A stretch of DNA of 64,000 bases from Pocillopora verrucosa (Eukaryota; Cnidaria; Anthozoa; Scleractinia; Pocilloporidae), in contig NC_089314.1 of NCBI RefSeq assembly GCF_036669915.1, positions 1,674,970 to 1,738,969 of the forward strand, read 5' to 3'. The notes under the pieces were generated by a model that saw only the letters and a program-made list of their open reading frames with translations, did not search any database and was not told the DNA's origin. This document shows, in pieces, positions 26,591 to 43,329 of this stretch. Both the position numbers and the translations under genes were made by a program. How positions within the stretch are numbered: the first letter of the stretch is position 1; the number at the start of each line of letters is the position of its first letter.

Positions 26591-26835
26591 ATGAGGCGTG
26601 TAAGACGGTCACTGATTAAAAGAAGAAAACGCAATCAACGTGGGGGTGCTTCTGTGAGTAGGTTAAGAAAATTCTTCGTAGAGGTCCCTCTCTTACCGAT
26701 AAATTAGCTTACGCAGCAAGTATGTTGTTATCGGGTCCTGCACCAGGTTTTGGAACACTTGGTAAACTTCTGGGAAAACAGGCTTTAACAGGCATTATGG
26801 ATAATGTCAAGCATTATAAAAAGGGTCGGCGATGA
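26591..26835 (+). pseudogene. Basic GG-motif small virion-type protein, one frame break
   Basis: ATG 26591 opens an arginine-rich start (RRVRRS, KRRKR) with an RGG site. That frame stops early, but the frame one base back continues with GPSLTDKLAYAASM and a glycine-rich hydrophobic stretch and stops at 26835. A one-base loss near 26660 explains this. Size, charge and the GG site fit the small virion proteins common in Polintons, comparable in style to adenovirus core and mu-type proteins (inference). The stop overlaps the next ATG as ATGA. Confidence 0.5.
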
Positions 26836-28246: not shown

Positions 28247-28270
28247 ATTGTGTGTTGTGGTGATCGCATC

Positions 28271-28591
28271 ATGAGAGGAGGAAGTTTGAGACGCTTTAAA
28301 GTGTATGTGCCAAATGAACAAGGAGGTGGTGGTCTCATGCGCTGGCAGACCCCCTCACCTTATGCCCCACCACCTTTTATCGGATCCTGGGGTGATCCTC
28401 AAATAGGTGCCGGAGTCAAAGACATGGCTAAAGATTTTTTGAAAGGTGTAACAGGAGGCCTTAAAAGCAGTGTCAAAAAGCGTTCGTTATCAGAAGTGCC
28501 GCGAGGTATAAAGAGAGGGGCTTCCCAAGCGCTCAAGAACGAATTGAAGAGAAAAGTTGCCAAGAGGTTGAACGATATTTTTGGAGAATAA
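28271..28591 (+). CDS. Small basic virion-type protein with GG motif
   Basis: 106 residues from ATG 28271. The N-terminus is basic (MRGGSLRRFKVYV), followed by EQGGGGLMRW, a proline-rich stretch and a lysine/arginine-rich helical C-terminus. GG sites followed by a hydrophobic residue recur in the neighbouring small proteins and resemble adenain-type cleavage sites. It lies between the integrase and the capsid gene. Likely an internal capsid component by position and composition; no family was recognised for certain. Confidence 0.6.
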   Translation: MRGGSLRRFKVYVPNEQGGGGLMRWQTPSPYAPPPFIGSWGDPQIGAGVKDMAKDFLKGVTGGLKSSVKKRSLSEVPRGIKRGASQALKNELKRKVAKRLNDIFGE

Positions 28592-28594
28592 AAC

Positions 28595-28792
28595 ATGGTC
28601 CGCATCAGCACCGTACGTCAAAGTGATCCTATCATTGGTGTAGGCACAACATCACCGACAGATCCTGTGTCTTCCATCTTAAAAAGGTATAAAGGGAGAA
28701 GAAGAAAACAACAGCAACGAGGAGGATTTCTCACAAGTCGTATAAAGAAAATAGGAACACGACAACGTGTGCATAAACGCAGAAGACGTTGA
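28595..28792 (+). CDS. Small arginine-rich virion-type protein
   Basis: 65 residues starting three bases after the preceding stop. It has an acidic/polar front (GVGTTSPTDPVSSIL), then KGRRRK, QRGGF and a very basic tail ending HKRRRR. The GG followed by Phe could be a maturation site. It precedes the major capsid gene by 15 bases. Probably DNA-binding by charge; the role is inferred. Confidence 0.6.
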   Translation: MVRISTVRQSDPIIGVGTTSPTDPVSSILKRYKGRRRKQQQRGGFLTSRIKKIGTRQRVHKRRRR

Positions 28793-28807
28793 AACAGACA
28801 CATCACC

Positions 28808-30187
28808 ATGTCTATCAAAGGGGCAGAGCAGAATTCAAGTCTAGATCTCTTTAGAATACCACCTACAGATCTTTCTACGGTAAAGTACCGATATGTCAAA
28901 ATACCACCTCAGACATCTAGTATTACTCCTATCCAAGTGTACGTGGAACGACAATCAGATCTCATCGATCTTTCGAGAAGTTTTGTCCAACTGGATTTGG
29001 GTTTCAAAACCACAGAAAATGCCAGTCTCACAGCACGCGCAAACAATGTGGGTGTGATGACTTCACCAGCCAACAATATTGCACACACCCTCTTCAAGCA
29101 AATCAATTTCAGAGCCAATGGTACCTTACTCACCGAACAAGTAGACATGTACCATCTTAAAGCTTTCATACAGACCATCCTTAATTATGACAGGAATGAT
29201 GGAGAGACGATACTCGAACCAGCTGGATGGCGGAACGAAATTGATTCTCCTGTAACCTACACCGCTGCAAATGTCAAGATGGATGATGACGCGTATACAG
29301 CTCTTTCCATAAATCATCAAGAAAGCATTAAGAGACAGAGAGCAGATGCAACAGATTACTATGCAGGAGGAAAGAGGAGAATCTTGAGAATGAAACCGTT
29401 TATAGACGCGTTTCACCAAGGAAAATGGATCGTCCCCAAAACTCTTTTGGAATTGGAATTTTATCTGAATCCAGCAGCTTTATTCATGAATGGAGAAGCC
29501 AATCCACCCAGTGAGGAAGTCCGAGTCAACCCGGAGGATATTAAACTTACCTTCTTTCTATGTCTGGTGTCCCTAAACCCAGCCGTCTACATGAGCATGA
29601 TGAGTATGATGACCAAAACCCCAACCAAGTATCCCATGATCCGTACCGAGATGAGACAGTTTCCCTTAGACAATGGGGCCACTTCTAAAGAAATCAACAA
29701 CCCATTCAATGGAAAGGTGCCCCAAAGAGTCATCATTGGTATTCTGAAAACTACTGCATTCAATGGTCAATACAACGAAGACCCCTTGGCCTTTGGAAAA
29801 TTTGGGGTGGAATACATCAAACAAATTGTGAATGGAGAAGAATACCCATACGAGACTTTGGAACTCAACACGGCTAATGGTCAAAAAGACTTGGTGGGTT
29901 ATCACCGATTTCTGGATGCTACTGGCTGTCTGTACAGAAATGCAGGAAACATGGTGCGATTCAAAGACTGGGGTCATGGAAAAAATTGCACGCTGTTTGC
30001 GTTTTCCAATGTGGCCAATGGAAGTCACGATGACCCGGTTCTTCTACCTAAAAATGAAGGCTTCATCAACATTCACATTAAATGTGCAGGGCAAGCAAGT
30101 CAGAAAACGGTGATCGTTTATGCTGAATATGAAGGCATTATGGAAATTGATGGCATTAAAGGAGCTACCACGATGGAAGTGCATTAG
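28808..30187 (+). CDS. MCP: Major capsid protein (double jelly-roll, hexon-like)
   Basis: Intact ORF of 459 residues. The N-terminal pattern SLDLFRIPPTDLST, then IPPQTSSITPI and DLSRSFVQLDL, is the usual opening of Polinton/adintovirus capsid proteins, and the length is typical of them. In known relatives it builds the icosahedral shell as pseudo-hexameric trimers. It is followed directly by the protease gene, the two reading frames being separated by only two bases (TAG TG ATG). The uninterrupted frame beside broken neighbours argues that the element was intact recently. Confidence 0.9.
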   Translation: MSIKGAEQNSSLDLFRIPPTDLSTVKYRYVKIPPQTSSITPIQVYVERQSDLIDLSRSFVQLDLGFKTTENASLTARANNVGVMTSPANNIAHTLFKQINFRANGTLLTEQVDMYHLKAFIQTILNYDRNDGETILEPAGWRNEIDSPVTYTAANVKMDDDAYTALSINHQESIKRQRADATDYYAGGKRRILRMKPFIDAFHQGKWIVPKTLLELEFYLNPAALFMNGEANPPSEEVRVNPEDIKLTFFLCLVSLNPAVYMSMMSMMTKTPTKYPMIRTEMRQFPLDNGATSKEINNPFNGKVPQRVIIGILKTTAFNGQYNEDPLAFGKFGVEYIKQIVNGEEYPYETLELNTANGQKDLVGYHRFLDATGCLYRNAGNMVRFKDWGHGKNCTLFAFSNVANGSHDDPVLLPKNEGFINIHIKCAGQASQKTVIVYAEYEGIMEIDGIKGATTMEVH

Positions 30188-30189
30188 TG

Positions 30190-30681
30190 ATGGAGTTTGT
30201 GTGGCTTACTACGAATCAACTCAACGCTTTAGCGGAAAGCGATCCAGAACTCCGCAAGTACTTTGTGAGTGCTTTAGCCTGTGACGAACTACCCGAGTCG
30301 CCTGAACGTGTGAAACCGAGAGCTTACATTGTCAATACCCACCCTGCAGACAAACCTGGGGAACACTGGATAGCTGTGTGGACCGAACACGATAGCTGTG
30401 AAATTTTAGATAGTTATGGTTTAGATTTAACCACCTATGAATTTCTGGCACCATTCATTGTATGGTTAAACCGATGGCCTTACGTGCGTAAAAATACTCG
30501 AGCATTACAATCTGTAAAAACCGCAAGTTGTGGAAACTATGCCATCATTTATTTAATGTGTAAAGCAAGACGCAAGAGTATGGATGAGTTTTTTTCCATG
30601 TTTTCTAAAAAGGATTATGTAGGCAACGATGATAAAGTAGGCGACATGTTAGAAGACATCATTCAATCGTTAATAAAATAA
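30190..30681 (+). CDS. PRO: Adenain-like cysteine protease
   Basis: 163 residues. The catalytic residues of the adenovirus-type (C5/Ulp1-like) maturation protease are visible: H59 in GEHWIAVW, D74 in LDSYG, Q107 (ALQSVK) for the oxyanion hole and C114 in SCGNYAI. It would cut virion proteins, probably at the GG sites seen in the small proteins around it. The ATG at 30190 is preferred over the GTG one codon upstream. Three AATAAA motifs overlap or follow the stop (30672-30696). Confidence 0.92.
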   Translation: MEFVWLTTNQLNALAESDPELRKYFVSALACDELPESPERVKPRAYIVNTHPADKPGEHWIAVWTEHDSCEILDSYGLDLTTYEFLAPFIVWLNRWPYVRKNTRALQSVKTASCGNYAIIYLMCKARRKSMDEFFSMFSKKDYVGNDDKVGDMLEDIIQSLIK

Positions 30682-30732
30682 AAGGAATGAAATAAAATCG
30701 TGTCACTTTTGTGTAACTCGCTTTTAGCAATC

Positions 30733-31391
30733 ATGTTCAAGTGTGTGGAACCAGGATTTTCGTTCAAATCCCCTTCCAATATTTTGATTGTGGGCCCTAC
30801 AAGTTGTGGAAAAACCACCTTTCTCCATCACCTACTTTTGGAAAATTTAGACCTCTTTGACCAAAGACCGACCCGCGTGCATTACTGTTATGGATCCTGG
30901 CAAAATAAGTTTGACGACATGCAACGCCATGGCATAGAATTTTTTAAAGGAGTGCCTACCCACGACGATTTAACAACATGGTTTGGAGATAAACGAGGGG
31001 TATTCTTGTCTTGGATGATCTCATGTCGGAGGGAGGAGATGACAGAGAAATACTAAATCTTTTCACACAATATTCTCACCACATGAATGTCACCGTGTGT
31101 TATCTCTGCCAAGACATGTTCCCTCAAGGAAAATATGCCAAAACCATCTCTAGGAATGCGCAATACATTATTGCCTTTAAAAATCCTAGAGATAAAGTGG
31201 CGTTGCGCACCTTACTGCTACAGATATACCCGACCAAGTGGCTACCTGTTATGGATATATATAATGCATGTACGGACAGACCCTATGGTTATTTGTTATT
31301 TGACGTACACCCTGCAAGTAGAGATTCTACGAGACTTTTAAGTCACTTGTTACGACACGAAGGGTGTGTACGCTGTTACAGAGAGAAATAA
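30733..31391 (+). pseudogene. ATP: A32/FtsK-like packaging ATPase, split by one frame break
   Basis: The front part, from ATG 30733, has the Walker A motif GPTSCGKTTF (residues 21-30) and ends at 31056 in its own frame. The back part, open 31011-31391 one base back, begins with the Walker B region (VLDDLMSEGGD) and continues with the sensor-like NVTVCYLCQDMF and RNAQYIIAFKNPRD stretches typical of these DNA-packaging ATPases. A single missing base near 31000, inside the Walker B strand, explains the split. The known role is pumping DNA into the capsid. The gene could be inactive or merely mis-sequenced. No convincing slippery site was found for programmed shifting. Confidence 0.85.
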
Positions 31392-31400
31392 ATAAGAAAG

Positions 31401-31619
31401 ATGCCTGGTTATAAGCGCAGTATGCCCACAACCCGAAGGAGAAGAAGAGTGAAAAGAAGACTAACCAAAAGAAGACAAAAAGGAGGTATCCTACCATTAG
31501 CGGCACTCATTCCAGCCCTCATTGCTGGAGGTAAAGCATTGGGTTTAAGTGCCCTTGGAGGAGCTGCATCGTTTGGGGCTAAAAAAGGCCTAGAAGCTCT
31601 TACAAAGAAAAAGCGATGA
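31401..31619 (+). CDS. Small basic-hydrophobic virion-type protein (mu/pVI-like composition)
   Basis: 72 residues: an arginine/lysine-rich front (TTRRRRRVKRR), a KGGIL site, a hydrophobic glycine/alanine-rich middle (LPLAALIPALIAGGKALGL) and a basic tail. The plan resembles adenovirus core and membrane-active capsid proteins, with GG as a plausible protease site. That is inference from composition. The stop overlaps the next ATG (ATGA). Confidence 0.65.
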   Translation: MPGYKRSMPTTRRRRRVKRRLTKRRQKGGILPLAALIPALIAGGKALGLSALGGAASFGAKKGLEALTKKKR

Positions 31620-31942
31620 TTAATAGTTTCAAGAGAAATGTGGATTTTTTAAAATCTATTTTACAAGAGAAAAATAGAAAGCGTCGTATGGAAAAATTAC
31701 TTCACGCTAGTAAAGATCAAATCAATGCCGTCAGTGAATTCACGTTGAACATGTTGAAGAAAAAGATACCTTTATCACCGCCCACCGTTGCCAAACTCAA
31801 GAAATATAGAGTGATGTTGAGAGAGTTGGGTAAACGGAGGAACTCTTTAAGAAAGCGGCGTCAATTACTTGTGAATCAAACAGGCGGTAGCTTTTGGAGT
31901 GGTATGAACGACGCGTTCTGTCAGTGTTTCAAGAGATCATGA
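31616..31942 (+). CDS. Helical basic protein with C-terminal TGGSFW motif
   Basis: 108 residues, mostly helical and lysine/arginine-rich (KNRKRRMEKLL, MLRELGKRRNSLRKRR), ending with NQTGGSFWSGM and a short cysteine-containing tail. The [K/R]-rich helix followed by a GG-aromatic site looks like a conserved Polinton accessory virion protein, but I cannot name it. Four-base overlaps with both the previous and the next gene (ATGA at each end) mark a tightly packed cluster. Confidence 0.6.
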   Translation: MINSFKRNVDFLKSILQEKNRKRRMEKLLHASKDQINAVSEFTLNMLKKKIPLSPPTVAKLKKYRVMLRELGKRRNSLRKRRQLLVNQTGGSFWSGMNDAFCQCFKRS

Positions 31943-32130
31943 CTGTCACCGTGCAAGAGGGTATAAACGAAGTGGACACGGGTATAAAGTTTGATTTGCA
32001 ATTCAACTACGACGACGACGACAGTGACTATAAGGATTCAACCGAGTGTAGACTCACAATAACTCAACTGTTTCGGTGGTTGCGTATGCGTGTGGTGGAA
32101 CCCTTGTGGCGATTATGGAGACGTTCTTAA
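31939..32130 (+). CDS. Short acidic/basic ORF in the overlapping cluster
   Basis: 63 residues from ATG 31939: an N-terminus predicted as beta-rich (TVTVQEGINEVDTGIKF), an acidic run (DDDDSDYKDS), then a helix with Trp and Arg (FRWLRMRVVEPLWRLW). It overlaps the previous gene by ATGA and the next by TAATG. Not recognised. Confidence 0.5.
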   Translation: MTVTVQEGINEVDTGIKFDLQFNYDDDDSDYKDSTECRLTITQLFRWLRMRVVEPLWRLWRRS

Positions 32131-32768
32131 TGGTGAAACCCGATGAGTTTCGAGCTTTGGTAGATTATTACAAGGGAAAAATTACTGAAAGTACTCTTCT
32201 GGACAAAGCCGCACGCGTGGCCGCCGAAGCAAAACTGTTATTAGAAGATACATCTACTCCTGCTGCTTTAAAAGAACCTGTGGTAAAAGAATTGTTAATG
32301 CAAGAACGCAAGCTTACTGACAAATTGAGACAGATTCCTATCGCCGGTGGTGTAGAACCTCCACCTCGAGACGATGATGGTAATCTCATGGAGGGGTTGC
32401 AAGAGGGATTGTTAAAAGAACTCATTAAATCCATAAATATGAGGGGACAAGCCGCCGTACCTCAGATGACACTCAAGAGGGAACCTGTCACACCTGTGGG
32501 GATCAAGAACGAACACGTCACCCCTGCGAAACCGGGAACGTCCAAGATTCCTTTTCTCACAGCTCCATCCCAAAAGATACAAAAAACGAAACGAAAACTT
32601 CCTGTTCCCACACCGCAAAAGCATCGCACGGAGTTGGAACGACTCAAAGAATTTGGTAACTGGGAACCTTGGGAAAAGAGAGGTTACGACCCGTATCAAG
32701 TGTTTGAAGATGACGAAACGCCAAAGTCGAAGAAAGGCAAAGGGAGGGGCAAGAACCGTCCTAGTTAA
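32130..32768 (+). CDS. Unrecognised 212-residue virion-cluster protein
   Basis: ATG 32130 overlaps the previous stop (TAATG). The first third is alpha-helical (DKAARVAAEAKLLL). Then comes an IAGGVEPPP site, a second helix (LQEGLLKELIKSI), and a low-complexity Pro/Lys/Thr-rich C-terminus (KLPVPTPQKHR) ending basic. It overlaps the phospholipase ORF by 59 bases. Position and layout suggest a minor virion protein; no family recognised. Confidence 0.55.
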   Translation: MVKPDEFRALVDYYKGKITESTLLDKAARVAAEAKLLLEDTSTPAALKEPVVKELLMQERKLTDKLRQIPIAGGVEPPPRDDDGNLMEGLQEGLLKELIKSINMRGQAAVPQMTLKREPVTPVGIKNEHVTPAKPGTSKIPFLTAPSQKIQKTKRKLPVPTPQKHRTELERLKEFGNWEPWEKRGYDPYQVFEDDETPKSKKGKGRGKNRPS

Positions 32769-33099
32769 GGCTAAAAGGAAACGACAGAGAGGAGGAAAAT
32801 TTGATATTCAGAAATGGATTTCAAAGTTAGGTGTCGAGTTTCATTGGCCCGGATACCAGTATATGGGTCCAGGTACAAAATTAGCCAAGCGATTAAAACG
32901 TGGTGATCCAGGAATTAATCGTCTTGATAGATTAGCCAAACAGCACGATATTGATTACAGTAAAGCTAAATCACTCGCTGACAAACATATTGCAGATCGT
33001 AAGATGGTAGCCGGAATCGATAAGTTTCCAGGCAAGAAGAGTTTAACCGAGCAAATTGTGAAGCGAATCATGCAAGCTAAACTTAAAACAAAATTGTAA
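32710..33099 (+). CDS. Parvovirus-VP1-type phospholipase A2 domain protein
   Basis: 129 residues from ATG 32710. After a basic leader with two GG sites (KAKGGAR, QRGGKF) comes a secreted-type PLA2 core: calcium loop YMGPGT at 51-56 and the catalytic HD-x-x-Y (H79, D80, Y83 in QHDIDY). In parvoviruses this domain breaches endosomal membranes during entry; the same use here is inference. The GG sites would let the protease free the PLA2 from its basic leader. An AATAAA signal sits 18 bases after the stop (33117-33122). Confidence 0.85.
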   Translation: MTKRQSRRKAKGGARTVLVKAKRKRQRGGKFDIQKWISKLGVEFHWPGYQYMGPGTKLAKRLKRGDPGINRLDRLAKQHDIDYSKAKSLADKHIADRKMVAGIDKFPGKKSLTEQIVKRIMQAKLKTKL

Positions 33100-33116
33100 C
33101 GCCTCTACAATGATGA

Positions 33117-33122
33117 AATAAA
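33117..33122 (+). terminator. Polyadenylation signal after the PLA2 gene
   Basis: AATAAA between the PLA2 stop and the minor capsid start, marking a likely 3' end of the upstream transcript. Confidence 0.5.
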
Positions 33123-33191
33123 ACTTGTGAAAATGCAACACAGTGTGTGTCTCCGGTTCATTTGTAGTTTTGTCGTTATCGAGAGCACATC

Positions 33192-34282
33192 ATGTCAGGT
33201 GATACTTTTACTTGACGTTACCCAGTAACGATGGGAGTCTGAAATATTTTCCAGACAACAAAAACAATTCTTGGAAAAATCGATTAGACAAACGCATCGA
33301 TTTAGAAGGAGAGTGGGAAGTGGGATTGAGTAGTATTTCGCTTCCACACGATTCTAAGGTGTCCAGTTACCTCAAAGGATTAAAAGACGATGATGTCTTG
33401 CTAACCACAGGACGAATTAAAGTAGCCACTGGGGATATACAACATAAAGTGACTTACAATGTCACGTATGGAGACATCAAACAACATCGTATCGAGACAG
33501 TTCACGATTTACTCAAATCCTTGTTTGATGAAGAACGTTTAAAATGTATTATGAATATGGGCTCGGCGTTTGGGAGTCATTTTTCTTCAGGACACAGCGC
33601 ACAATTTGAAGTGATTGCGGATGAGGATAAAGAAACGATTACTGTAACAGCAGACAAGGTAAAATCGACTGATATAACTCATCAAGAAGTTCGTGACGGT
33701 CTCTATTTTGAGTTACCTCGAGACATGTGTGAGTTGTTTGGTTGGACGAAAAAAACAACAGTTCCTTATCGTCGTATTGTTAGTGGTCCTATTGAAGAGA
33801 ATTGTAATGTATCACGACCGGCGCATAATCTCACAGTGACCAAACGTGGTACGGTGTGGAGTTATGATAGGAGGCTTACTACATCCAGTTTGGCGTATTA
33901 CAGATATGAGATCCCATGGAAAGACCGATTTGCGGAGAAATATCATAGATTTCTTCTTAGCGATCTGAACTGGACCTTTATCAATACTAAGAGAAGTACC
34001 TACTTAAATTTACCTTACCCACGAACCTTGTATATGTATTCCTCGCTTTGTGCTCCAGTACGCGTGGGAGATCAGACGACTGATCTTATACGTCAAATAC
34101 ACTACCAACCAATCTTGGAAGGAAATTATTATTACGAACCCAAGCAGATTCATTACATCAAGTTACGTAAGAATCACATCGATGTGGTGGAAACACAGAT
34201 GAGTGAGTCGGAAAATAATAATTTGGCTCAGTTTACAGACGGCGCTTCTATAGTCACCATGCATTTTAGACGAGTGAGATAA
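33192..34282 (+). pseudogene. mCP: Minor capsid protein (penton-like), one frame break near its start
   Basis: A single jelly-roll minor capsid (penton) protein of Polintons is expected here. The body (33212-34282, ~356 codons) shows the family opening LPSNDGSLKYFPDN followed by IDLEGEWEVGLSSI. The best start, ATG 33192, encodes seven residues and then hits TGA; the body continues one base back, so one base seems missing near 33210. Without the repair the body has no ATG before the conserved opening. The known role is capping the five-fold vertices. Sequence error and true mutation are equally possible. Confidence 0.85.
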
Positions 34283-34283
34283 C

Positions 34284-34509
34284 ATGTTTAACCAAAAAGA
34301 GGCAGCCAGAGGCTGTCTGTCTGAAGCCGCCGCCGCCAAAAACCGAAGCCCAGGAAAAGAAGAAGAGAAAGAAACGCAAACGGATCATACATGGGAAGAA
34401 AAAAAAAGAACTCCAATTAAAAGAAATGATACGTAACGTGGAGGAAAGAACTTATTTTTCAAAGAAATGGCTTGATAATATTGAACAACATAGAAAACGT
34501 TCAGTGTAG
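34284..34509 (+). CDS. Small polar protein after the minor capsid gene, probably split
   Basis: ATG 34284 lies directly after the minor capsid stop. Fifty residues include ARGCLSEAAAAKNRS and a charged tract, ending at 34436. The frame one base ahead runs on from ATG 34426 with ERTYFSKKWLDNIEQHRKR to 34509, which reads like the natural continuation. A small protein with similar AARGCLS and TYFSKKWLDNIE phrases seems common after this gene in Polintons (from memory, unverified). Function unknown. Confidence 0.4.
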
Positions 34510-34538
34510 TGTTTTTTGTTAAGTTGTAGACACTAAAG

Positions 34539-34718
34539 ATGCCGCGAGTGTATTCATGTCGATGCCGCAAATATAAATTATGCATGATTTCTCAAGAAAA
34601 ACAAATCGAAGAAACATGAAGGGATTATTATGAAAATTTACGAAAAGTAGTACGCCTCACCGAAATGGAAGTGGTCACCCAAGGGATTCAAGAATTAACC
34701 GTTTACTTAAAGAATTAA
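34539..34718 (+). pseudogene. Short cysteine-containing ORF with an in-frame stop
   Basis: ATG 34539 opens a frame with YSCRCRKYKLC, interrupted by TGA after 26 codons and then continuing in the same frame to 34718 (RDYYENLRKVVRLTEMEV). A C-to-T change of CGA would give this TGA. It is the last plus-strand ORF before the polymerase gene approaches from the other side. Confidence 0.35.
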
Positions 34719-34752
34719 CAAACACGTCATGAAAACTTTTTTAAAACTTTGT

Positions 34753-34758
34753 TTTATT
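34753..34758 (-). terminator. Polyadenylation signal for the polymerase gene
   Basis: TTTATT on the plus strand is AATAAA on the minus strand, about 60 bases past the polymerase stop. Confidence 0.5.
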
Positions 34759-34818
34759 AAAAAAATAATTTAAAAAATGTTCGCTTTGAGTGTCAATGTT
34801 TTTTGTTTTGTTTTGTTT

Positions 34819-37800
34819 TTATAAAAGCAACAAGTCCATGTTCTCCAAATCTTGTGCATCCAGTCGCGAATATCCGTAAGGATAAGACTTAAAACCGTGC
34901 GAATGATCTAAAACTCGCTTGTCGAACACGAGTTGATACGACTTAGTCTGAGTCTCAGTCTTGATTTTTTTCAAAGTGGGGTTTCTGACAAAGTGGGTCG
35001 GGTTGACTACCAGCGTTTTTCTTTGTTCATCTAACGGGTGAAGAACCTCATCCAAAATATTTTGGCGGATGATGTCGTAATTTAGCTGTTTGGCACCACG
35101 TACATTCAGCGAGAATCCCTTTACTTTGCACACCACTTTACCATTCTTTGTTTGATACCCATAGTTCTTCGCACCTGCGGAGATGAATTCTACAATAAAG
35201 TCGCCATTGTCAAGCTCGTTGGTCATGTCGCCGAGGTAGTCGCCAAGCTCGATTTCTGTCTGCCCCGGTTTCCATGTATATATGACCGAGTCTGTATCGT
35301 AATATAAGACTCGGTCACCCAACTTCTCCAACGATTCGTACAATTTAAGGCGGGCCAAACAGGTGGTAAATGCTGCGATGAAAATATTAGTATTGCTCCC
35401 TTTGTAAGGATCTTCTTCATCGCGTTTGTATGATACTTCTATTACTTCGGAATTAAGAATACGGATGTCTGTCACGGTGAAGAGAGGGTCGTCAAGCAGA
35501 TCTAGGAGTTCGTAGGGTTGCGTGCATTGTTTGGTCTTCGATTTATTGTTTTGTTGGCCAAATTTCCCCCAGAAGGAGTTAAGCATGAGTTTAGCCGTGG
35601 CTTTTCTTCCGGGGTTCTTGACGATCTTGGTAGGGTCGAGTCGGATACCTTCTTTTTCTTCATAGCAATGAATGTATTTTTCTTTTTGAGTATCGGTCCG
35701 CACCCAGTTTGGGTAGCCACCGCTCTCTTGCTTAATTTTTAACCAGGTGTCCACGTACGGCTGGAACAGACCTTTTCGACGCTGCGGGAAGTCCCATACT
35801 TCATGAATTCGGACGAGTCGGTATCCTTTTTCGATCGCTTTATTTATCTCTGGGGTACACCAGGTGCCTCGTAACATTCGTTCTTCATCACTGTGTGGGC
35901 AGTGATAGTCGCGTTCCAGCATGTGTTCTTTCTGTGTCTCTATTTCTACACACTTACGGCATAACGGGAAGGTCAGCTTGTAGGAGTTTCCAATTTTATG
36001 ACGGTAAGGTAAGACTGGGTTATACATGTCAGCGGGTGGTGTGATGTCCACAGTCATCAAGCCAAAGTAACTTCTAGGGTCTTGATTCTCTGGTTCCAAA
36101 TAGATGTCCGGGTGGCCTACAGGGTACGTACCATACTTGTTTACGTAGGGGTACTCAGACGTTACGTCGATGTAGCGGATTTCTTCTCTTTCTTCTTCAT
36201 TTACTTTATGGTACAGGCAGGCGGCGCCCGTTCTACCACCGTAAAAACCTTCTCTTGGGTTCAAAGGAGGGACGATATCCAAATCTTTTAGAAATTCGGT
36301 AATGGCTGGTGTTTCTTTCTTCTCTTTCTCCCATTCACACCCCCAGATTTCCACCACTCGATACCCTTTACCGCGGAGTTTTTGAATTTTCTGACTGGTC
36401 TGTTGGCGTAAGGCTTCTACGGTCAACCCATTGGAACAGAACGGAATTTGTTTGCGATTGGTGTAACAGGTACGACAACCATGATAGAGGCATCCGTAAA
36501 ATTCGTAGACTGTGCGGGTCTGTGCATCGTAACCATCCACGAAGTACGAGGTAGGGCCAACAGGGATACGATACTCTCCACCGTTACGTGCGTGCTGAAT
36601 TCGACTTCCGGTATTGTATTCTTGCCACATCAACCATTCCAAAGATGCTTTGGAGTGATTCATACGGGCACCTCGCCACCCCGATGAAGGTTCTACTGCT
36701 ATGAGATCTAAGGGTAAATGTTTCCTCCTCCAATAACGGTTACACGCTGCGGCGATCGTAACGCATTTTTCCATAGGATTGAAACCGGCGATGCTTTTAA
36801 ATTCTTGGATGAATTTGTGACATCCAGCTTTCAGTAACGCAACATCTGAGTGACAGTATGCAAGCAGTTCTTCTTTGAGATCAAATGGGTGTTGTTTGGC
36901 TGCTTCTTCTCTATACCACACTTCGAATTCTTCTTTTTTCTTACTCGACATTCCCTCCGGATCATAGTAAGAAACTTCAGGTAACGGACCCACATAACTT
37001 CGATTTTCTTGCGTATGAAACTTGTGTGGGAAGAAGCCTTTTTTCAACTCGGTGAGACCAAAGGTGTCGGTAAATGCAGACAGAGCCATGGGAAGAAAAG
37101 CCATGGAATCTTTAAATGTGATTTTACCAGCTTCCAGAGAAATCATCTTTGTGCCGTTAGGAATCATCAAATCGAATTTTCTTCCTTCTATCACAAGCTG
37201 ATGCTGTATGAAAATGGAATCATACCCTTTTAAATTATGGAATATGCAGATGACTTCACGCGGTTCTTTGTACTGATCTTCGGTAAGGTTCGTCAAGAAT
37301 TCCAGAAACTGTTTACTGCAATCGTCGCCATAAAACGTGTAGGAGGTGTTGTTTTCGGAAGTTTGAGCGCAGACGCAAATGGGTAGGTGTGTTCCGTCCT
37401 CGCTGATCATGGCTTCATAGTCCGCGTAGACGAAGATGGATGGTTCTTCGTACACGGATGCCTCGGGGTTTATTTTTAAATGCTTCTTGATTTTGGCTTT
37501 CGTTTTCCGTTTGGGTGAATCTTCTTGTTCAGGGATGGGTTGAATGTAGCATTTGTGTTCTCTAAGGTCCACGTACTCCTTACAGTTAGAGCATTTTCCA
37601 AAGTAACAACGGTGCAGCTGTTGGGGGTCTGGCTGAAATTGTTTGCAACAGTTACCGCATCGTACTAGGGTCATGCAGATGTTTTTTGCGCGGTGTAAGG
37701 CGAGGCAGTTCTGACTGTAAAAATGGCGGTTGCAGGCTGAGCAGTGGAGAGAGGGTTCGTGAGGTTTTGTACCACATTCGGTCTGCTTGCATGCTTTACA

Positions 37801-39179
37801 GCGACGGCCCTCGCATGGGTGGTTGCGGAAGTCGTCATGGTCAAAGCCTTTGTTGCACGTGTCACAAAAATACGATCTTTCCAGGAATCCGAGGTAAGAC
37901 GTACATCCATGGTAATGACCCATATCGCTTTCGTACTCTGGTTGATACAGGAGGCGGATGATGTACTTTGGCGATTCCACGTTTCCTTGAAACGTAATGC
38001 AATATGGATAGCATGTGGTCATCACTTTCAACTGGTAGTCGGGCGCCAGGTACTGTTGAAACTTTTCTAATTCGGCACGCCCACAAGAGCCTTCGGGCAC
38101 ACCAGCTTGCTTGTGAATGAATTTGGCGCATCGGGTGAGCACATTCGGATTATTTCCAAGATTCTTATAGTAACGCTTTCCCTCTACACCATCGTCTTTA
38201 TGCAAGTGGGCTTTTGTTAGACAAATGGCTCTTGCAAGGCAAAGGTTGTCTTCTGAATTTTTAATCGGTAACACACATTGTTTGTTGTGGAGAACATCTT
38301 CAATATTATGTCTTCCCTTTGTTAATTTAGATTTACCACCTTCCTTTGGTTTTGGCACGATGGTGAGGTCGACGGCGAACTTATCCTCAGGGCTAAAAGA
38401 TTCATTCGAGTTAAGTTGATTGGCCAGTTGGTTCATATATGCACCAAATCGCTCTTCGCCATTTCCATTCATGATTTCACTGACAGTAAAGCGTTGTGTT
38501 TGTACATGGTGGTCAAATTTCTCGGCTTTAAAGTTTAAAAACACTTCATCTGTATCTTTCAATGTTTTGTTTTGCCACTGGTCGGTAACTTTTTTGCGAT
38601 GGAGTGTTTCTTTCATCGATCTAAGAAATAAAAAAGGTCCTTAAGGATCTAGCAGTTTTTTCTCTTTCATTTTTGATTTCTAAGACAAGTTTTGATATTG
38701 CTAGGTCAGCTTCTCCGTATATCGAAGACACATGATGATTTTTATCTATGTCTGTTTCATAGTGCTCGTAGCAATTACTTAACGACAGAAACTAAATCAT
38801 GATCATCTTACCTGACTAAAGCCTCCGTGACTTCTTTTCCCACATTATCGTTCTTTGTTGGGTTACGCCTCTGTTTTAATGTGGCGCGATATCTTTGTTG
38901 ACTCGCCGCTGATTTCTTCCACCGCTTGGGGAGACCAAATTTTTGAAAATCAAATTCAAACAAGGGCATACCACCACCAATTTGCTCAGGGTGTTCATCC
39001 AAACCAATGTCGAGGGCATCTAATTGTTGTTGATCCAATTCACGACCAAATTGAACCATTTGCGAGTCTGTCACATCGTTGCCATATTGATTTTCAAAGA
39101 CTTCTCCAATTTCGTTTAATAAGTCATCAGAAATACCATCATCCCCATATTCCACTTCGTCAAACTTTCGTTTCGCCAT
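34819..39179 (-). CDS. POLB: Protein-primed family B DNA polymerase, two exons
   Basis: Replicates the element. The large exon (34819-38620) is open for 1267 codons. In the numbering from its first ATG it has a cysteine-rich zinc cluster (about 250-356), exonuclease motifs DYEA (399-402), HNLKGYD (460-466) and YCHSDVALL, then palm motif A DVTSEYP, motif B KLMLNSFWGKFG and motif C YYDTDS (about 1107). A first exon (38812-39179) starts MAKRKFDEV and ends at the donor CAG|GTAAGA. The acceptor TTTCTTAG|ATCG at 38620 matches it in phase (two bases plus one), removing a 191-bp intron and giving about 1389 residues. The first exon contains QIGGGMPLF, a GG site like those of the virion proteins, and ends in a helix-like stretch that continues naturally into exon 2. 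The large exon alone also starts with ATG, so an unspliced form is possible. Confidence 0.92.
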
Positions 39180-39283
39180 CGCTCGATCCCTCAATTCAAT
39201 CTACAACTTCACACTTTACTACTTCTTCATCTACATCTGCAGCCTTTGAGATGATGGCGCAAGCTTTGTAGTAGTTTTTTATG

Positions 39284-39667
39284 GAATTTGAATTTCAAAA
39301 TTTTCAGGCTGTATACAACGACTCTGATTGGCGACGATTTCCTTAGGGGGTTGGGCAGCCTCAGGCAGCTTCAAATTTGTTTAATTGTTCTCCCTAAGGG
39401 GCTCTGTTTTATTCGAAAACGTAGTTGAAACGCTTTCCACTTTTCAACTTGCGTTTAAAGCAGAAGCGTCAACTGAAATTTCAATTTCAAATTTTTCAGG
39501 CTGTATACAACGACTCTGATTGGCGACGATTTCCTTAGGGGATTGGGCAGCCTCAGGCAGCTTCAAATTTGTTTAATTGTTTTCCCTAAGGGGCTCTGTT
39601 TTATTCGAAAACGTAGTTGAAACGCTTTCCACTTTTCAACTTGCGTTTAAAGCAGAAGCGTCAACTG
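39284..39667. repeat. Two tandem ~192-bp repeats between divergent genes
   Basis: The unit (containing ggctgtatacaacgactctg, then an inverted pair CCTTAGGG / CCCTAAGG around ggcagcctcaggcagc, then GTTGAAA...TTTTCAAC) occurs twice with only a few differences. It sits between the 5' end of POLB (minus) and the RING gene (plus), where a shared promoter or enhancer, or a replication element, would be expected. Function not shown by sequence alone. Confidence 0.85.
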
Positions 39668-39767
39668 TTGGTTCAAGGTTTTGACTACGATTTGACTACT
39701 TTATCAGTAAGAAGAAGTTTTGACGTGTGTGTGTGATCTTCTACGTGAACTACAAGTGTGACACAAG

Positions 39768-39844
39768 GTAAGTTTGTGATTGCGATTCGTTTTTTATTTG
39801 CTAGATTTGCTTTTTTAACATTTTACTTCGCTTTTCTCTTTTAG
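39768..39844 (+). other. Intron in the 5' untranslated region of the RING gene
   Basis: A strong donor ACAAG|GTAAGT at 39767/39768 and a pyrimidine-rich acceptor TTCTCTTTTAG ending at 39844 place the ATG exactly at the start of the next exon. Confidence 0.65.
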
Positions 39845-40195
39845 ATGCCTCCTGTTAGAAGATCACGACGATTAAGACGTCAGGATGTCGAAGAAGACGG
39901 AGCGCCCTACGATTGCTTCATCTGTTTGACTTCAATTACTGTAAACATGTATAATGCTACAGCGACACCATGCTGTACAAGACGAGTTCACCGTGCATGT
40001 TACCAGCAACATGTCCATACATCGGCTGCATGTGGACACTGCCGACGACCATTTGCTGCCCAAGCCGCCATCGATCCAATAAGAAATCCACCGATAAACG
40101 AGGATTTGGCAAGGAGAGAAGCACAAAGACAACAGGCCATCCAAGATTTGGAAGCATTGCTTCAACCTGGAGCGCTCGAAGCCAGGATTCAACAG
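39845..40195 (+). CDS. RING-finger protein, shared N-terminal exon
   Basis: 117 codons from the ATG at the splice acceptor, ending in phase 0 at CAACAG|GTGTGT. After an arginine-rich leader it has a RING-type zinc finger: C24-x2-C27, C43/C44, H49-x2-C52, then H56/H58 and C63-x2-C66. It is followed by a glutamine/arginine-rich helix (ARREAQRQQAIQDLEALLQ). RING fingers usually recruit ubiquitin-conjugating enzymes, so this is probably an E3 ligase or a ligase-like regulator. It lacks a stop of its own shortly after the exon except by read-through into intron sequence. Five downstream segments can each be joined in phase, which suggests a set of proteins sharing the RING part. Confidence 0.8.
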
Positions 40196-40294
40196 GTGTG
40201 TGTGTTTTTTATTTTACGAATCGTTGTTTGCGTGAACATTTCAAAAAAAAAAATTTTAAAAAACTAAGACAACCTTTTTTCTATTCATCTTTAG

Positions 40295-40672
40295 ATGCAT
40301 GACGTATTTGAAGCATCGTATTTTATCGTCGATCATGAGTTTATGAGCAATTATTTACTTCGTCTGATCACCGATATGCGGAATATTCTTACTAGACTGG
40401 ATGTGGAACATGATTTGATTCGAATTGAAATTTATAAACCTCCAGATTTTAACACGTATTTTGAACGCTATATCGATGAAATCGTTCCAGCTCATATACG
40501 CAGATTGTTTTTGACTCAACACTTTCCTTTCGCTGAGTTTTTAGTAGCTTTTTTTCATCGCATTAGAAGAGTACTATACCAATTTTTTAGGTTTCAATTG
40601 CGTTTCCCTGCGCATTCAAATCGTGATTCTATTCGTTATTGCCACTATATGTTTCGTGAACGTTTTAGATAA
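40295..40672 (+). CDS. Alternative terminal exon a of the RING gene
   Basis: Acceptor CTATTCATCTTTAG ends at 40294. The exon opens MHDVFEASYF and runs 125 codons in phase 0 to TAA. It is helical and very rich in Phe, Arg and Ile (FFHRIRRVLYQFFRFQLRF). This is the nearest and default partner of the RING exon. No family recognised. Confidence 0.6.
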   Translation: MHDVFEASYFIVDHEFMSNYLLRLITDMRNILTRLDVEHDLIRIEIYKPPDFNTYFERYIDEIVPAHIRRLFLTQHFPFAEFLVAFFHRIRRVLYQFFRFQLRFPAHSNRDSIRYCHYMFRERFR

Positions 40673-40804
40673 CCTTTTTTTTTTTGCTCTTTAAATTTTA
40701 TTGACATGTAGGAGAGTCTGAATTTTATATGAGAGCTCATTTTTCTTTTTATTACGACATTTTACACAATAGCAATTCAATTAGACTTTTTTTAATGATT
40801 TCAG

Positions 40805-41164
40805 ATTCCTCCACATGATTACCTGTCAACTTTATGTTTGCTCTATGTGACTGATCAAGAAACCAATTTCATTCGAAATTCTTTAAGAGCTCTTTTTCAA
40901 GCTCTAAGAATTATAATAAATAGACTGGAATATTATGTGATTCATGTGCAATTTTGTATGGAATTTCAAAATAGTTTTTTTCAAGCGCATCAGTTATTTC
41001 CCGATACATTTTATTATCAATTACTTTTTGATGTTCTTTTAGAAAATACTGTAATAAGTGATATGTTAGGAATACATGCGGGTATCTACGAAACAAGAAG
41101 ATTAAACCGATCTTATTGTCATAGCAATTTATTTATGCGAGTACGTTTATTTTCTATTTTATAG
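40805..41164 (+). CDS. Alternative terminal exon b of the RING gene
   Basis: Acceptor TTTTTAATGATTTCAG ends at 40804. The exon opens IPPHDYLST and is open for 119 codons in phase 0 with the RING exon. It has the same character: helical, aromatic, with LRALFQALRIIINRLEYY. Its stop TAG (41162-41164) is also the AG of the next acceptor. Confidence 0.55.
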   Translation: MPPHDYLSTLCLLYVTDQETNFIRNSLRALFQALRIIINRLEYYVIHVQFCMEFQNSFFQAHQLFPDTFYYQLLFDVLLENTVISDMLGIHAGIYETRRLNRSYCHSNLFMRVRLFSIL

Positions 41165-41530
41165 ATACCTCAAGAATCAATCTGTAGACTTTTAGTTAGA
41201 TTTCCGATTATAAAGACTACCACATACTATTTAATTCGTTCTTTACGAAGACATTTTCAACGATCTCTTCCCAGATTTTATTTTTCAATACAAGCATGTT
41301 TTATGAGAAATTTTTACCTCAGGTTACAATTAGTTGCTGAAGAACGACACGGTTTTTATACGCCAAGACAATTATGGAATCATTATTTACATTTGTATAT
41401 CTTACCTAATTCCGTGTTACCGTTTGTTGAAATAATACCTTGTAGTAATCGCATATCCATGGAATTACTGCAAAATTACTTTTATGGTCAACTTTTTCAT
41501 ATTCGTTTATATGGGGTTTCTCTTTCGTAG
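41165..41530 (+). CDS. Alternative terminal exon c of the RING gene
   Basis: Acceptor TTTTCTATTTTATAG ends at 41164. The exon opens IPQESICRLL, with 121 codons in phase 0. It is aromatic and arginine-rich (YYLIRSLRRHFQRSLPRFYF). Its TAG stop again forms the AG of the next acceptor. Confidence 0.55.
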   Translation: MPQESICRLLVRFPIIKTTTYYLIRSLRRHFQRSLPRFYFSIQACFMRNFYLRLQLVAEERHGFYTPRQLWNHYLHLYILPNSVLPFVEIIPCSNRISMELLQNYFYGQLFHIRLYGVSLS

Positions 41531-41797
41531 ATACATCAAAACTATGTGGATACAGATGCCCTCTATTGGTTTTTCAGCAATTTAAAATTTGAATTATCAG
41601 TCATGGAAAACTTTAATTTAGCTGTTTATTTTCAAGATGTTGATTTTTTAAATTGTGTTCTTTCACTGTATAACATAAACCAATTCATACATTGTTTTTA
41701 TGATATCCAAGAAAGAGAGCTCCATAGGTACGAGTGGTTGGCTACGACGTGGTCAAGTAATGACTATGAAATTAAATTTTTTACATTTTTAGAATGA
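41531..41797 (+). CDS. Alternative terminal exon d of the RING gene
   Basis: Acceptor GGTTTCTCTTTCGTAG ends at 41530. The exon opens IHQNYVDTD, with 88 codons in phase 0. It contains WFFSNLKFELSVMENFNLAV. Its end overlaps the acceptor of exon e by a few bases. Weak donor-like GT sites exist near its 3' part but are out of phase. Confidence 0.5.
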   Translation: MHQNYVDTDALYWFFSNLKFELSVMENFNLAVYFQDVDFLNCVLSLYNINQFIHCFYDIQERELHRYEWLATTWSSNDYEIKFFTFLE

Positions 41798-42092
41798 ATT
41801 CCCTTTGGATGATTTCCCTCTGGAGGATCTCGACGAGTTTTTTTTCACACTATGGTGTCTTTTAGATATGGAAGATGATGAAATTGTTGTACTTTTTAAC
41901 CAATTTCACTTTTTTATGGTTGTGAATCAGATTTGTAATGTCACACCAGTCATAAGTTGGGGTTTTGTAGATTATGAGGAAGATGTAGCAGCACCCCTTA
42001 TAGAAGATTATCTTTGGTTAACTACTAATTACAATTCAAACAATTATAATATTACACATTTTTATTCAACACCCGTAGCGTACTTTTTGTAA
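41793..42092 (+). CDS. Alternative terminal exon e of the RING gene
   Basis: Acceptor TTTACATTTTTAG ends at 41792. The exon opens NEFPLDDFPL, with 99 codons in phase 0, although it lies in a different genomic frame from exons a-d. It is acidic and aromatic (DEFFFTLWCLLDMEDDEIVVLF). It ends next to the only clear polyadenylation signal of the array. Confidence 0.5.
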   Translation, partial: NEFPLDDFPLEDLDEFFFTLWCLLDMEDDEIVVLFNQFHFFMVVNQICNVTPVISWGFVDYEEDVAAPLIEDYLWLTTNYNSNNYNITHFYSTPVAYFL

Positions 42093-42094
42093 TT

Positions 42095-42100
42095 AATAAA
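42095..42100 (+). terminator. Polyadenylation signal of the RING array
   Basis: AATAAA three bases after the last stop. No other plus-strand AATAAA was found between exons a and e, so all forms probably share this 3' end. Confidence 0.6.
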
Positions 42101-42128
42101 CTTTTACATGGTTTTACATTTTGTCTCT

Positions 42129-42398
42129 CTATCTGTAATCTATTTCGTGGTAGGCAGAATGGAAACCATCTGCGACTTCTTTATCCCAGTTGGTATAGTA
42201 GATACATCTCTGGTTTCCATAGGGGTGGTAAATGTATCGTAAGGCATCGCGAAATATAATGTCACGATGTCTTTCCCTTAGTTTTAATTCCTGTATTTCC
42301 AGATCTTTTTCCTTACAAGAATGAACATGTTTCGATGCTTGCTGACGAATCTTGCGTTTTAGATTGGAAATTTTCTTTTGAGCCTTGGATCCTCCCAT
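42129..42398 (-). CDS. Charged coiled-coil-like protein at the right end of the element
   Basis: 89 residues from ATG 42398. The first half is basic and helical (KKISNLKRKIRQQASKH), followed by heptad-like KEKDLEIQELKLRERHRD, then an aromatic tail (YIYHPYGNQRCIYYTNW). It is tail-to-tail with the RING array. I do not recognise it. Upstream on the same strand a short frame starting MDCDRALES (from about 42543) could be part of the same gene, but it meets a stop. Confidence 0.5.
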   Translation of the reverse strand: MGGSKAQKKISNLKRKIRQQASKHVHSCKEKDLEIQELKLRERHRDIIFRDALRYIYHPYGNQRCIYYTNWDKEVADGFHSAYHEIDYR

Positions 42399-42528
42399 CC
42401 CGAAATTGGATGTAACAACACACTTGCGCGGCCTTTTTTCTTGCTCTGGTCAATATCGAAGTTGTACTCGAGATGGGGAGCAGAGATAACTACGATAGAT
42501 AATTTCTCTAGGACTCTCGAGAGCTCTG

Positions 42529-42757
42529 TCACAATCCATGGTAATGGAGACTGGCTGAATCTCTAAGAATACCTCGGTTTTTCTGGCGTAAGCGATACCA
42601 TTTTAAAGAGTGCTTAAATTCTGTCATAGCCTCGATGTCAGTAACCAACCAAGTAATACATTGGATGTAAGATGATCCACCCACGTGAAACGCGTTGTAA
42701 GCAGACACATGTTTTGCATGTACACGTAAAATCGTAGGGATAATGAAAAACAGACAT
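42529..42757 (-). CDS. Right-end counterpart of the TIR-embedded cysteine-rich protein
   Basis: ATG 42757 inside the right TIR opens the same YPYDFTC-x-C-x2-C start as the left-end gene at 25071. The first frame ends after 39 residues (42638). A second frame one base away stays open to 42529 and looks more protein-like (AFHVGGSSYIQCITWLV, KHSLKWYRLRQKNRG), so an indel near 42705 probably split the gene. A shared N-terminus with unrelated C-termini at the two ends follows from the start codon lying within the inverted repeat. Confidence 0.45.
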
Positions 42758-43329
42758 GTTTATGACTCCTTCTACTTACAACGACGTCACTTTAAATAAT
42801 AAATCCTAACCTCCAGAGATTCGGACAGCCTTAAGCAATACTAGACAACTCTTGAGCAAGTCCTAGACAAGTTTAGACAACATCTCTCTTGGGATTTAGC
42901 TTGGGTGGGCAAGTCTGGGCAGATGACGTCACACGTAACATTTTGTGACGTCTTACACCACATAAGTACCAGCCATAGGACATTTCGTGACATTCATACC
43001 ACATAGGGACTGGCTCTAAAGCATTGCGCATGCGTACATTTCTAATTAGAAGATTGCACATGCACATCACACAAATAGGTATCCCACATGGATGAATTTT
43101 ACGCTACCGTTCCATATATAAATCAAACCGACCCTTATCTCTATTAACAAAGATGACCGACATGGACACTCGCTCATTAAATAATCAATTTTTACCCTCG
43201 TGTACCTACACGTCATGAATATAATTATCTAATAACCCTAACACGTGTACCTACATGGCATGAATAAATTATTACTCAAACTCGGACCCAGGCCGCGCGG
43301 GAATTGCTAGTCAGACGCGCTATACTACT
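42708..43329 (-). repeat. Right terminal inverted repeat of the Polinton
   Basis: Reverse complement of 24510-25120 with scattered substitutions and small indels. It ends gcgctatactact. The next bases (cgcgtccgattgg) do not repeat the 6 bp left of the element. Confidence 0.95.

What the first reader, a model, noticed from the sequence alone, without database searches (positions are those of the whole stretch)
39845..42092. RING-finger exon followed by a tandem array of five candidate alternative terminal exons in a Polinton
After the RING exon (ending in phase 0) there are five consecutive open segments. Each is directly preceded by a pyrimidine-rich stretch and AG, each is in phase 0 with the RING exon, and each has its own stop. 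Four begin with related residues (M-H-D, I-P-P, I-P-Q, I-H-Q). For b/c and c/d the TAG stop of one segment is itself the AG acceptor of the next, and d/e overlap. All segments are helical and aromatic/arginine-rich, as if copied from one ancestor. One polyadenylation signal follows the whole array. The simplest reading is one RING module joined by alternative 3' splice choice to one of five variable C-termini, for example a ligase with switchable target recognition. Because a-d share one genomic frame, UAG read-through is a second possibility. I know of no described Polinton system like this.
Basis: partly seen in the sequence, partly recalled or inferred. Interest (0 to 1): 0.88.

Follow-up and report, generated by a model that had tools for sequence, protein, structure and literature searches.

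The report
Viral RING exon with swappable tails
A virus-like element in what looks like a coral genome seems to encode one RING (ubiquitin-ligase-type) head that RNA splicing could attach to any one of five different tails, and related elements keep the head but gain, lose, duplicate and replace tails.

Summary
A RING exon (39845-40195) is followed by five open phase-0 segments, each directly behind a pyrimidine tract and AG, and a poly(A) signal at 42095. In 1000 shuffles no more than one such segment appeared; four of the five pass the same filter in the real sequence. The element is an integrase-bearing Polinton/adintovirus-like provirus.

Comparison within the same genome adds most. Of 25 loci read, window included, 21 carry two or more segments, in the window's order. 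Arrays vary: L014 has e duplicated and no d; L019 and L020 have d-like duplicates. Acceptor AGs are conserved above background (44/53 against 426/777), and each segment shows purifying selection against a divergent relative.

A second family has a homologous RING exon, also with a phase-0 donor, followed by other phase-0 segments with no detectable similarity to a-e. So the RING hub is kept and the tails turn over.

Only d and e are clearly homologous, so "all copied from one ancestor" is not supported. UAG read-through does not fit the frames. No transcript was available: splicing, E3 activity and target choice are inferred.

The parts
24510..43329 (.). Whole Polinton/adintovirus-like element, terminal inverted repeats about 24510-25121 and 42707-43329
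   Evidence: inverted repeats 87-100% complementary; integrase with chromodomain, polymerase B, adenain-type protease
39282..39665 (.). Two tandem 192-nt units upstream of the array, 97% alike; probable promoter region (inference)
39755..39767 (+). 3' end of the inferred non-coding exon 1, donor AAG|GTAAGT with GT at 39768; its 5' end is unknown and the start given here is arbitrary
   Evidence: donor-like AAG|GTAAGT, GTACGT or GTATGT in 8 of 9 loci printed
39845..40195 (+). RING exon, 117 codons, begins with ATG behind its own acceptor, ends in phase 0 at CAG|GTGTGT
40295..40672 (+). Segment a, alternative terminal exon, begins with ATG
40805..41164 (+). Segment b; its TAG stop is the acceptor of c
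41165..41530 (+). Segment c; its TAG stop is the acceptor of d
41531..41797 (+). Segment d; homologous to e
41793..42092 (+). Segment e, overlaps d by 5 nt in another frame
42095..42100 (+). Poly(A) signal AATAAA behind the whole array; one also follows the last segment in L014, L029, L031, L042, L043, L046

Best explanation
It is one gene of a Polinton/adintovirus-like provirus. A non-coding first exon and a RING exon with one phase-0 donor are followed by a tandem array of alternative terminal exons. Each mature mRNA joins the RING exon to one acceptor; the joined segment supplies the C-terminus and the stop, and the later segments ride along as 3' untranslated sequence to the poly(A) site. 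The products would share an N-terminal RING and differ in their tails. Shown by sequence: phases, open frames, conservation of donor and acceptors above background, selection on every tail, gain, loss and duplication of tails, and the same plan in a second family. Inferred: that this splicing really occurs (about 0.8), that the RING is an active E3, and that the tails choose different host targets (both together about 0.45).
For: Chance: 4 segments against 0-1 in 1000 shuffles. 21 of 25 family-I loci read hold two or more segments in the window's order. RING donor GT in all 11 loci printed; relatives in protein databases run past the same Q|V boundary into diverging sequence. Acceptor AGs kept in 44 of 53 alignable cases against 426 of 777 other AGs, p=2.6e-5 (related loci are not independent, so p is approximate). 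pN/pS: RING 0.23, a 0.43, b 0.49, e 0.39 (with L014), d 0.31 (with L015), c 0.56 (with L020), every upper 95% bound at or below 0.72; eight wrong-frame controls 0.82-1.56. In the window b, c, d, e have their first Met at residue 52, 47, 25, 26 and no in-frame ATG before the acceptor, so they need an upstream coding exon in phase 0. The exon-1 and RING donors are the two best donors in the window, L013 and L014. Family II repeats the plan with a homologous RING, a phase-0 donor and phase-0 segments under selection.
Against: No RNA evidence was available; a RING search that admitted products up to 308 aa found no RING-tail fusion at the splice site (sequences of 6 of the 24 new hits, all 125 aa or shorter, were not read), and a probe for processed copies found none. 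9 of 53 acceptors and 2 of 8 RING donors failed the alignment count. Not every tail lacks a start: a, s1, s3 begin with ATG, L014 b and e' have Met at residues 7 and 6, and L042 sX and s7 have an in-frame ATG upstream. c shows no constraint between close copies (1.55 [0.70-6.67] with L013; 0.77 [0.47-1.54] with L030), and s7 is not distinct from neutral (0.55 [0.27-1.34]). Donor-like sites also occur inside some tails (W 41728; L042 3661; L043 3427, which outscores that locus's RING donor). In L036 an a-like segment lies upstream of a RING. The RING match is below Pfam's cut-off.
Confidence: 0.78

Rival explanations
1. The tails are serial, not alternative: internal donors inside segments join two or more tails into one protein (for example RING-b-d).
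For: Donor-like sites inside d at 41728 (TAG|GTACGA, also in L013) and in b at 41141; strong ones inside s7 of L042 and L043.
Against: The d site of the window and L013 is not among the nine best donors of L014, which has no d; the b site GTACGT of the window reads GTTGGT in L014. The 24-nt stretch it would splice out before c is too short for an animal intron (recalled). Each tail ends in its own stop in several diverged copies.
Confidence: 0.08
2. Trans-splicing or an operon: each segment's acceptor receives a spliced leader, as in some hydrozoans, and the segments are separate proteins.
For: Acceptors sit directly behind the previous stop, as in trans-spliced operons; a, s1 and s3 begin with ATG.
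Against: In the window b, c, d, e start without ATG and their similarity to relatives begins at the acceptor. There is no poly(A) signal between the segments of L014, though internal AATAAA occur in the window (inside b), L042 and L043. Spliced leaders in anthozoans are not known to me (recalled; the one paper looked at, PMC3273482, was seen only in two passages that do not settle it).
Confidence: 0.05
3. Internal initiation or re-initiation makes the tails as separate proteins from an unspliced or partly spliced mRNA, with no fusion to the RING.
For: a, s1 and s3 start with ATG; L014 b and e' have an early Met. Exon 1 joined straight to a would give a alone.
Against: Conserved phase-0 acceptors are then unexplained; in the window b-e have no early start.
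Confidence: 0.06
4. UAG read-through joins the segments in one frame.
For: In the window a-d share one frame and b/c and c/d are separated by single TAG codons.
Against: a ends in TAA and d in TGA. a and b are in different frames in L009 and L013; in L014 b is mod 0, e mod 1, e' mod 0. Family II segments also change frame (L042 s5, s6, s7).
Confidence: 0.02
5. A decayed single gene: one long frame broken by chance stops.
For: Many copies in the genome are visibly decayed (stops and frameshifts).
Against: Stops lie at the same segment ends in diverged clades, next to conserved acceptors, and each segment shows purifying selection against a divergent relative.
Confidence: 0.01

Closest known systems
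Polyomavirus T-antigen gene (recalled)
   Same: A DNA tumour virus early gene in which a shared N-terminal effector exon (DnaJ domain) is spliced to different C-termini that bind host proteins.
   Different: There 2-3 products, overlapping frames and a J domain; here a RING and a tandem array of separate terminal exons whose number and kind change between elements.
Insect lola, mod(mdg4) and tramtrack (recalled)
   Same: One shared N-terminal domain exon (BTB) joined to one of many alternative 3' exons.
   Different: Cellular genes with large introns, each tail exon with its own poly(A) site; here a compact viral unit where a stop codon can double as the next acceptor and one poly(A) signal follows the array.
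Adenovirus early regions E3 and E4 (recalled)
   Same: A compact accessory region near an inverted repeat, spliced by the host, with several products from one promoter.
   Different: Most products there do not share one N-terminal domain plus interchangeable tails.
Stylophora coral adintovirus (named in PMC11071308, passages only)
   Same: A Polinton/adintovirus of a related stony coral, so the nearest named element.
   Different: I could not see its gene map; whether it carries this array is unknown. The founding adintovirus paper is not held.

Membership tests
Polinton/adintovirus-like element | Terminal inverted repeats | tested here: met
   24510-25121 against 42707-43329
Polinton/adintovirus-like element | Retrovirus-type integrase, protein-primed-type polymerase B, adenain-type protease | tested here: met
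   rve E=3.1e-15, DNA_pol_B_2 E=5.3e-41, Peptidase_C5 E=1.2e-5; the priming type itself was not tested
Polinton/adintovirus-like element | Double jelly-roll major capsid protein and penton | tested here: inconclusive
   Named by recall and position only; no convincing Pfam match for 28808-30184 or 33203-34279
RING-type E3 ligase | RING zinc ligands | tested here: met
   zf-RING_2 E=2.2e-4 but below the curated cut-off; best solved relative ZNRF3 E=0.062; Cys and His positions nearly invariant in relatives
RING-type E3 ligase | Ubiquitin-ligase activity with an E2 | not testable with these tools
   needs an assay
Shared exon with alternative terminal exons | One conserved donor and several in-phase acceptors, each followed by an open frame with its own stop | tested here: met
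Shared exon with alternative terminal exons | Transcripts with the alternative junctions | not testable with these tools
   no transcript data held; search for processed copies negative
Tandem array of homologous tails | All tails detectably related | tested here: not met
   hhalign: d-e clear; c-e only just above its 30 shuffles (17.1 against 15.7, probability 1.8%); the other eight pairs of a-e within shuffles

The most novel reading that the evidence does not exclude
A plug-in effector system of animal Polinton-like viruses: one conserved RING hub exon with a fixed phase-0 donor, and a tandem array of terminal exons that evolves by duplication, loss, replacement and recombination between elements, so that one small transcription unit supplies several ligases against different host factors. 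It is old enough to be shared by two families whose tails are no longer recognisably related.
Probability: 0.45. Interest if true: 0.86.

Novelty: new variant of a known kind. Interest (0 to 1): 0.76.

Why it matters
Viruses often carry single adaptors that turn the ubiquitin system on host defences. A gene that keeps the RING and swaps the recognition part would show how a small virus can hold a library of such adaptors in about 2 kb, in a layout (a stop codon that doubles as the next acceptor) that makes adding or replacing a tail easy. The tails would then point to host proteins worth finding in corals. The prediction can be tested directly with RNA-seq of the host.

Tried and rejected
Tail homology: phmmer, MAFFT and hhalign among a-e gave only d-e clearly above shuffles; c-e exceeded its 30 shuffles narrowly with 1.8% probability. 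Family I against family II tails gave nothing convincing either way (best E about 0.01 in searches of 364 and 584 open frames). Pfam gave no convincing match for any tail scanned, and profiles of a and of d/e gave none in solved structures.

Environmental relatives: six scans of IMG/VR with the presumed capsid protein, both RINGs, b, e and s7 found none. The stretches read near C13:9858590 and C13:9597541 (presumed capsid 65-66%) showed no array, and hold retroelement-like frames. L049 matches the window only up to 38805 and L050 only over the neighbour gene at 38806-39180.

Product search: a RING query that admits lengths up to 308 aa (P0011, region 1-125; 41 hits, 24 of them new, 18 of these read) gave no RING-tail fusion at the predicted site. 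P0014 joins a RING to a b-like stretch, but inside the RING exon, as a deletion would. The probe for processed copies hit one unrelated place.

Read-through, trans-splicing, serial splicing, separate initiation and decay were weighed and are given under rivals.
Full report
OBSERVATION. The RING exon 39845-40195 ends CAG|GTGTGT in phase 0. Segments a (40295), b (40805), c (41165), d (41531) and e (41793) each begin directly behind a pyrimidine-rich tract and AG, read on in phase 0 and end in their own stop. The TAG stops of b and c are the acceptors of c and d; d and e overlap by 5 nt. AATAAA at 42095 follows; another lies inside b at 40915. In 1000 dinucleotide shuffles of 40196-42100 the number of such segments was 0 (961 times) or 1 (39 times); the real sequence gives 4 under the same filter, d failing narrowly.

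ELEMENT AND HOST. The array lies at the right end of an 18.8-kb element with inverted repeats 24510-25121 / 42707-43329. It encodes an integrase with chromodomain, a polymerase B, an adenain-type protease and a phospholipase-A2-like domain. The 459-aa protein at 28808-30184, here called the presumed capsid protein, and the presumed penton are named by recall and position only; Pfam gave no convincing match. The host is inferred to be a stony coral of the Pocillopora kind: the named species among RING relatives are Pocillopora meandrina and Stylophora pistillata, and the genome has 353,415,432 bases in 52 contigs. No tool named the host.

SAME ARRAY ELSEWHERE IN THE GENOME. Searches of the own genome gave 30 places for the RING (many belong to other RING families), 25 for b, 26 for e, 18 for a and 12 for c; several places can be one locus. 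I read 24 further family-I loci (L009-L022, L028-L037; L018 and L036 overlap). With the window, 21 of 25 carry two or more segments, in the window's order; L017, L018, L035 and L036 do not, and in L036 an a-like segment lies upstream of a RING. L009, L010 and L011 are near copies with all five segments open; L012 has e in two frames. L013 (79-92% in protein) and L021 (DNA 90.6%, 184 gap positions) keep all five but broken in places. The L014 clade (46-75% in protein) has RING, a, b, e and a second e', and no d; a 22-codon open remnant of c behind a conserved TAG acceptor was read in L031. L015, L032 and L033 also keep d. L020 has c, d, a d-like copy and e behind a segment that starts like a and continues like b. 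L019 has two d-like pieces. L018, L019, L035 and L036 show a further open segment that is not in the window.

SELECTION. Nei-Gojobori pN/pS with bootstrap 95% intervals against divergent relatives: RING 0.23 [0.15-0.33], a 0.43 [0.31-0.61], b 0.49 [0.33-0.72], e 0.39 [0.29-0.58] (with L014) and d 0.31 [0.19-0.45] (with L015); c 0.56 [0.42-0.72] (with L020, whose three stop codons were skipped). Eight wrong-frame controls, two each for a, b, c and e, gave 0.82-1.56; none was run for d or the RING. Close copies are uninformative or near 1, notably c (1.55 [0.70-6.67] with L013; 0.77 [0.47-1.54] with L030); the first 70 residues of b against L015 gave 0.62 [0.39-1.00].

SPLICE SITES. All 11 loci printed have GT at the RING donor: CAG|GT in L009-L012, L014, L015, AAG|GT in L013, CGG|GT in L017, CAA|GT in L018 and L019, GAC|GT in L020. 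Database relatives run past the same boundary into diverging sequence. The exon-1 donor reads AAG|GTAAGT, GTACGT or GTATGT in 8 of 9 loci printed; L018 has CGA|GTAAGT. A simple donor matrix (frequencies recalled) ranks the exon-1 and RING donors first and second in the window, L013 and L014; the RING donor is first in L027 and, narrowly, in L042; in L043 a site inside s7 outscores it, and L046 does not include the RING. In alignments to 14 loci, acceptors kept AG in 44 of 53 alignable cases against 426 of 777 other AGs, p=2.6e-5; in the ten more divergent loci 24 of 33 against 174 of 491, p=2.8e-5. Loci are related, so these p values are approximate. The nine misses are RING in L015, b in L016, d in L014, L029 and L031 (a clade without d), and e in L015, L016, L020 and L033; direct reading shows AG at e in L015, L016 and L020, so some are alignment slips. 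RING donors kept GT in 6 of 8 and exon-1 donors in 4 of 5, against 493 of 861 other GTs.

WHY JOINED TO THE RING. In the window b, c, d and e have their first Met at residue 52, 47, 25 and 26, and no ATG in the 0-2 open in-frame codons before the acceptor. They need a start codon from an upstream exon in phase 0, and the RING exon is the one found. This is less strict elsewhere: L014 b and e' have Met at residues 7 and 6, and L042 sX and s7 have an in-frame ATG upstream. a begins with ATG, as do s1 and s3, so exon 1 joined straight to a could make a without the RING.

FRAMES AND STOPS. a and b share a frame in the window but not in L009, L011 or L013; in L014 a and b are mod 0, e mod 1, e' mod 0. 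UAG read-through therefore cannot be the conserved device.

SECOND FAMILY. More distant RING hits (28-32% identity) lead to loci L042, L043, L044, L045 and L027/L046 (one element). Three of these five lie near a presumed capsid gene 33-39% identical to the window's (C5 and C4 within 3 kb, C3 within 10 kb on the other strand); none was listed near the two C14 loci. Their RING is homologous to the window's (phmmer E 1.2e-10 for L027, 3.6e-8 for L044, 5.6e-8 for L043, 8e-7 for L045, 0.004 for L042, among 364 open frames). The donor is GG|GTAAGA in phase 0 in L042, L043, L044 and L027. Behind it come segments s1, s2, s3, sX, s5, s6, s7, each at a pyrimidine tract and AG and in phase 0 where intact; L042 shows six of them with a clear acceptor (s1, s2, sX, s5, s6, s7). 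Some copies are broken or out of phase (L043 s2 and its second s3, the second s3-type segment of L046, two s2 copies of L044). L051-L054 carry parts of the same set; a RING was found in L051 but not in the stretches read of L052-L054. pN/pS: s1 0.43 [0.28-0.65], s2 0.43 [0.25-0.70], s3 0.49 [0.35-0.69], s5 0.39 [0.26-0.59], s6 0.59 [0.40-0.86], s7 0.55 [0.27-1.34]. s2 occurs three times in L044 and twice in L045 and L052; s3 twice in L043 and L046. A poly(A) signal follows the last segment in L042, L043 and L046; internal AATAAA also occur in L042 and L043.

HOMOLOGY OF TAILS. d and e match (hhalign 87%, E=3.8e-6, score 35.8 against a maximum of 20.2 in 30 shuffles; 33%, E=4.5e-4 with a stricter set). 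c-e exceeded its 30 shuffles narrowly (17.1 against 15.7) at 1.8% probability; the other eight pairs of a-e did not. s3 and sX match weakly (22%). Family I and II tails show no convincing match. So the RING hub is kept and the tails turn over.

MOSAIC ELEMENTS. The element at C10:15192816 has a presumed capsid protein listed as 100% identical to the window's, but its polymerase DNA is 65% and its array DNA 69-72% identical. Recombination between elements, which would move whole arrays, is my reading; nested insertion was not excluded.

HOW IT PROBABLY WORKS. Host RNA polymerase II would transcribe rightward from the region with the duplicated 192-nt unit. Exon 1 is spliced to the RING exon, whose donor then takes one of several acceptors. 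The first stop ends translation and the rest of the array is 3' UTR. The RING would recruit an E2 and each tail a different target. Only the sequence steps are shown; splicing, activity and targets are inferred.

KNOWN OR NEW. A shared effector exon with alternative tails is known from polyomavirus T antigens and insect lola/mod(mdg4) (recalled). I saw no report of a RING exon with a tail array in Polintons or adintoviruses in eight paper searches (listings only; one search was about trans-splicing). PMC11071296, PMC11071308 and PMC3273482 were seen only as passages. The founding adintovirus paper is not held, so an earlier mention of such a gene cannot be excluded.

Noticed in passing
39282-39665: Tandem duplication of a 192-nt unit (97% alike) just upstream of the RING gene, also seen in L021/L038; it looks like a duplicated promoter or enhancer.
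   Followed up: partly
L018:1054-1302, L019:1029-1331, L035:1413-1667, L036:1961-2248: A further similar open segment (YSLITSMKHIL...) upstream of a in one clade of arrays; possibly another tail type. Its splice sites and selection were not tested.
   Followed up: no
C10:15192816-15210500 (L014, L040, L041): Element whose presumed capsid protein is listed as 100% identical to the window's while polymerase and array DNA are only 65-72% identical: a mosaic or nested element.
   Followed up: partly
C6:3123183-3138300 (L021, L038): Presumed capsid listed as 100% identical, but polymerase and array regions are 95% and 91% identical with many small gaps; decay, assembly error or mosaic.
   Followed up: no
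36900-38640, minus strand: The N-terminal part of the polymerase ORF has a motif (DNLCLARA) that recalls OTU deubiquitinases; PMC11071308 (passage) reports an OTU domain fused to polymerase in a Stylophora polinton. A ligase-like and a deubiquitinase-like domain may thus occur together.
   Followed up: no
26174-26542: Open frame near the left repeat whose sequence recalls a death-fold domain; Pfam found nothing.
   Followed up: partly
C6:1811500-1846000 (L023-L025): Cluster of other RING open frames, some with two RING copies in tandem, sharing the basic RRSRRL start.
   Followed up: no
39845, 40295, 40805, 41165, 41531: The exon starts behind the acceptors resemble each other (ATGCCTCCT, ATGCATGAC, ATTCCTCCA, ATACCTCAA, ATACATCAA), as if the acceptor region itself had been copied or is a splicing signal.
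   Followed up: no
42129-42398, minus strand: Small gene convergent with the array; the same DNA region is 71-78% identical in the L014 element.
   Followed up: no
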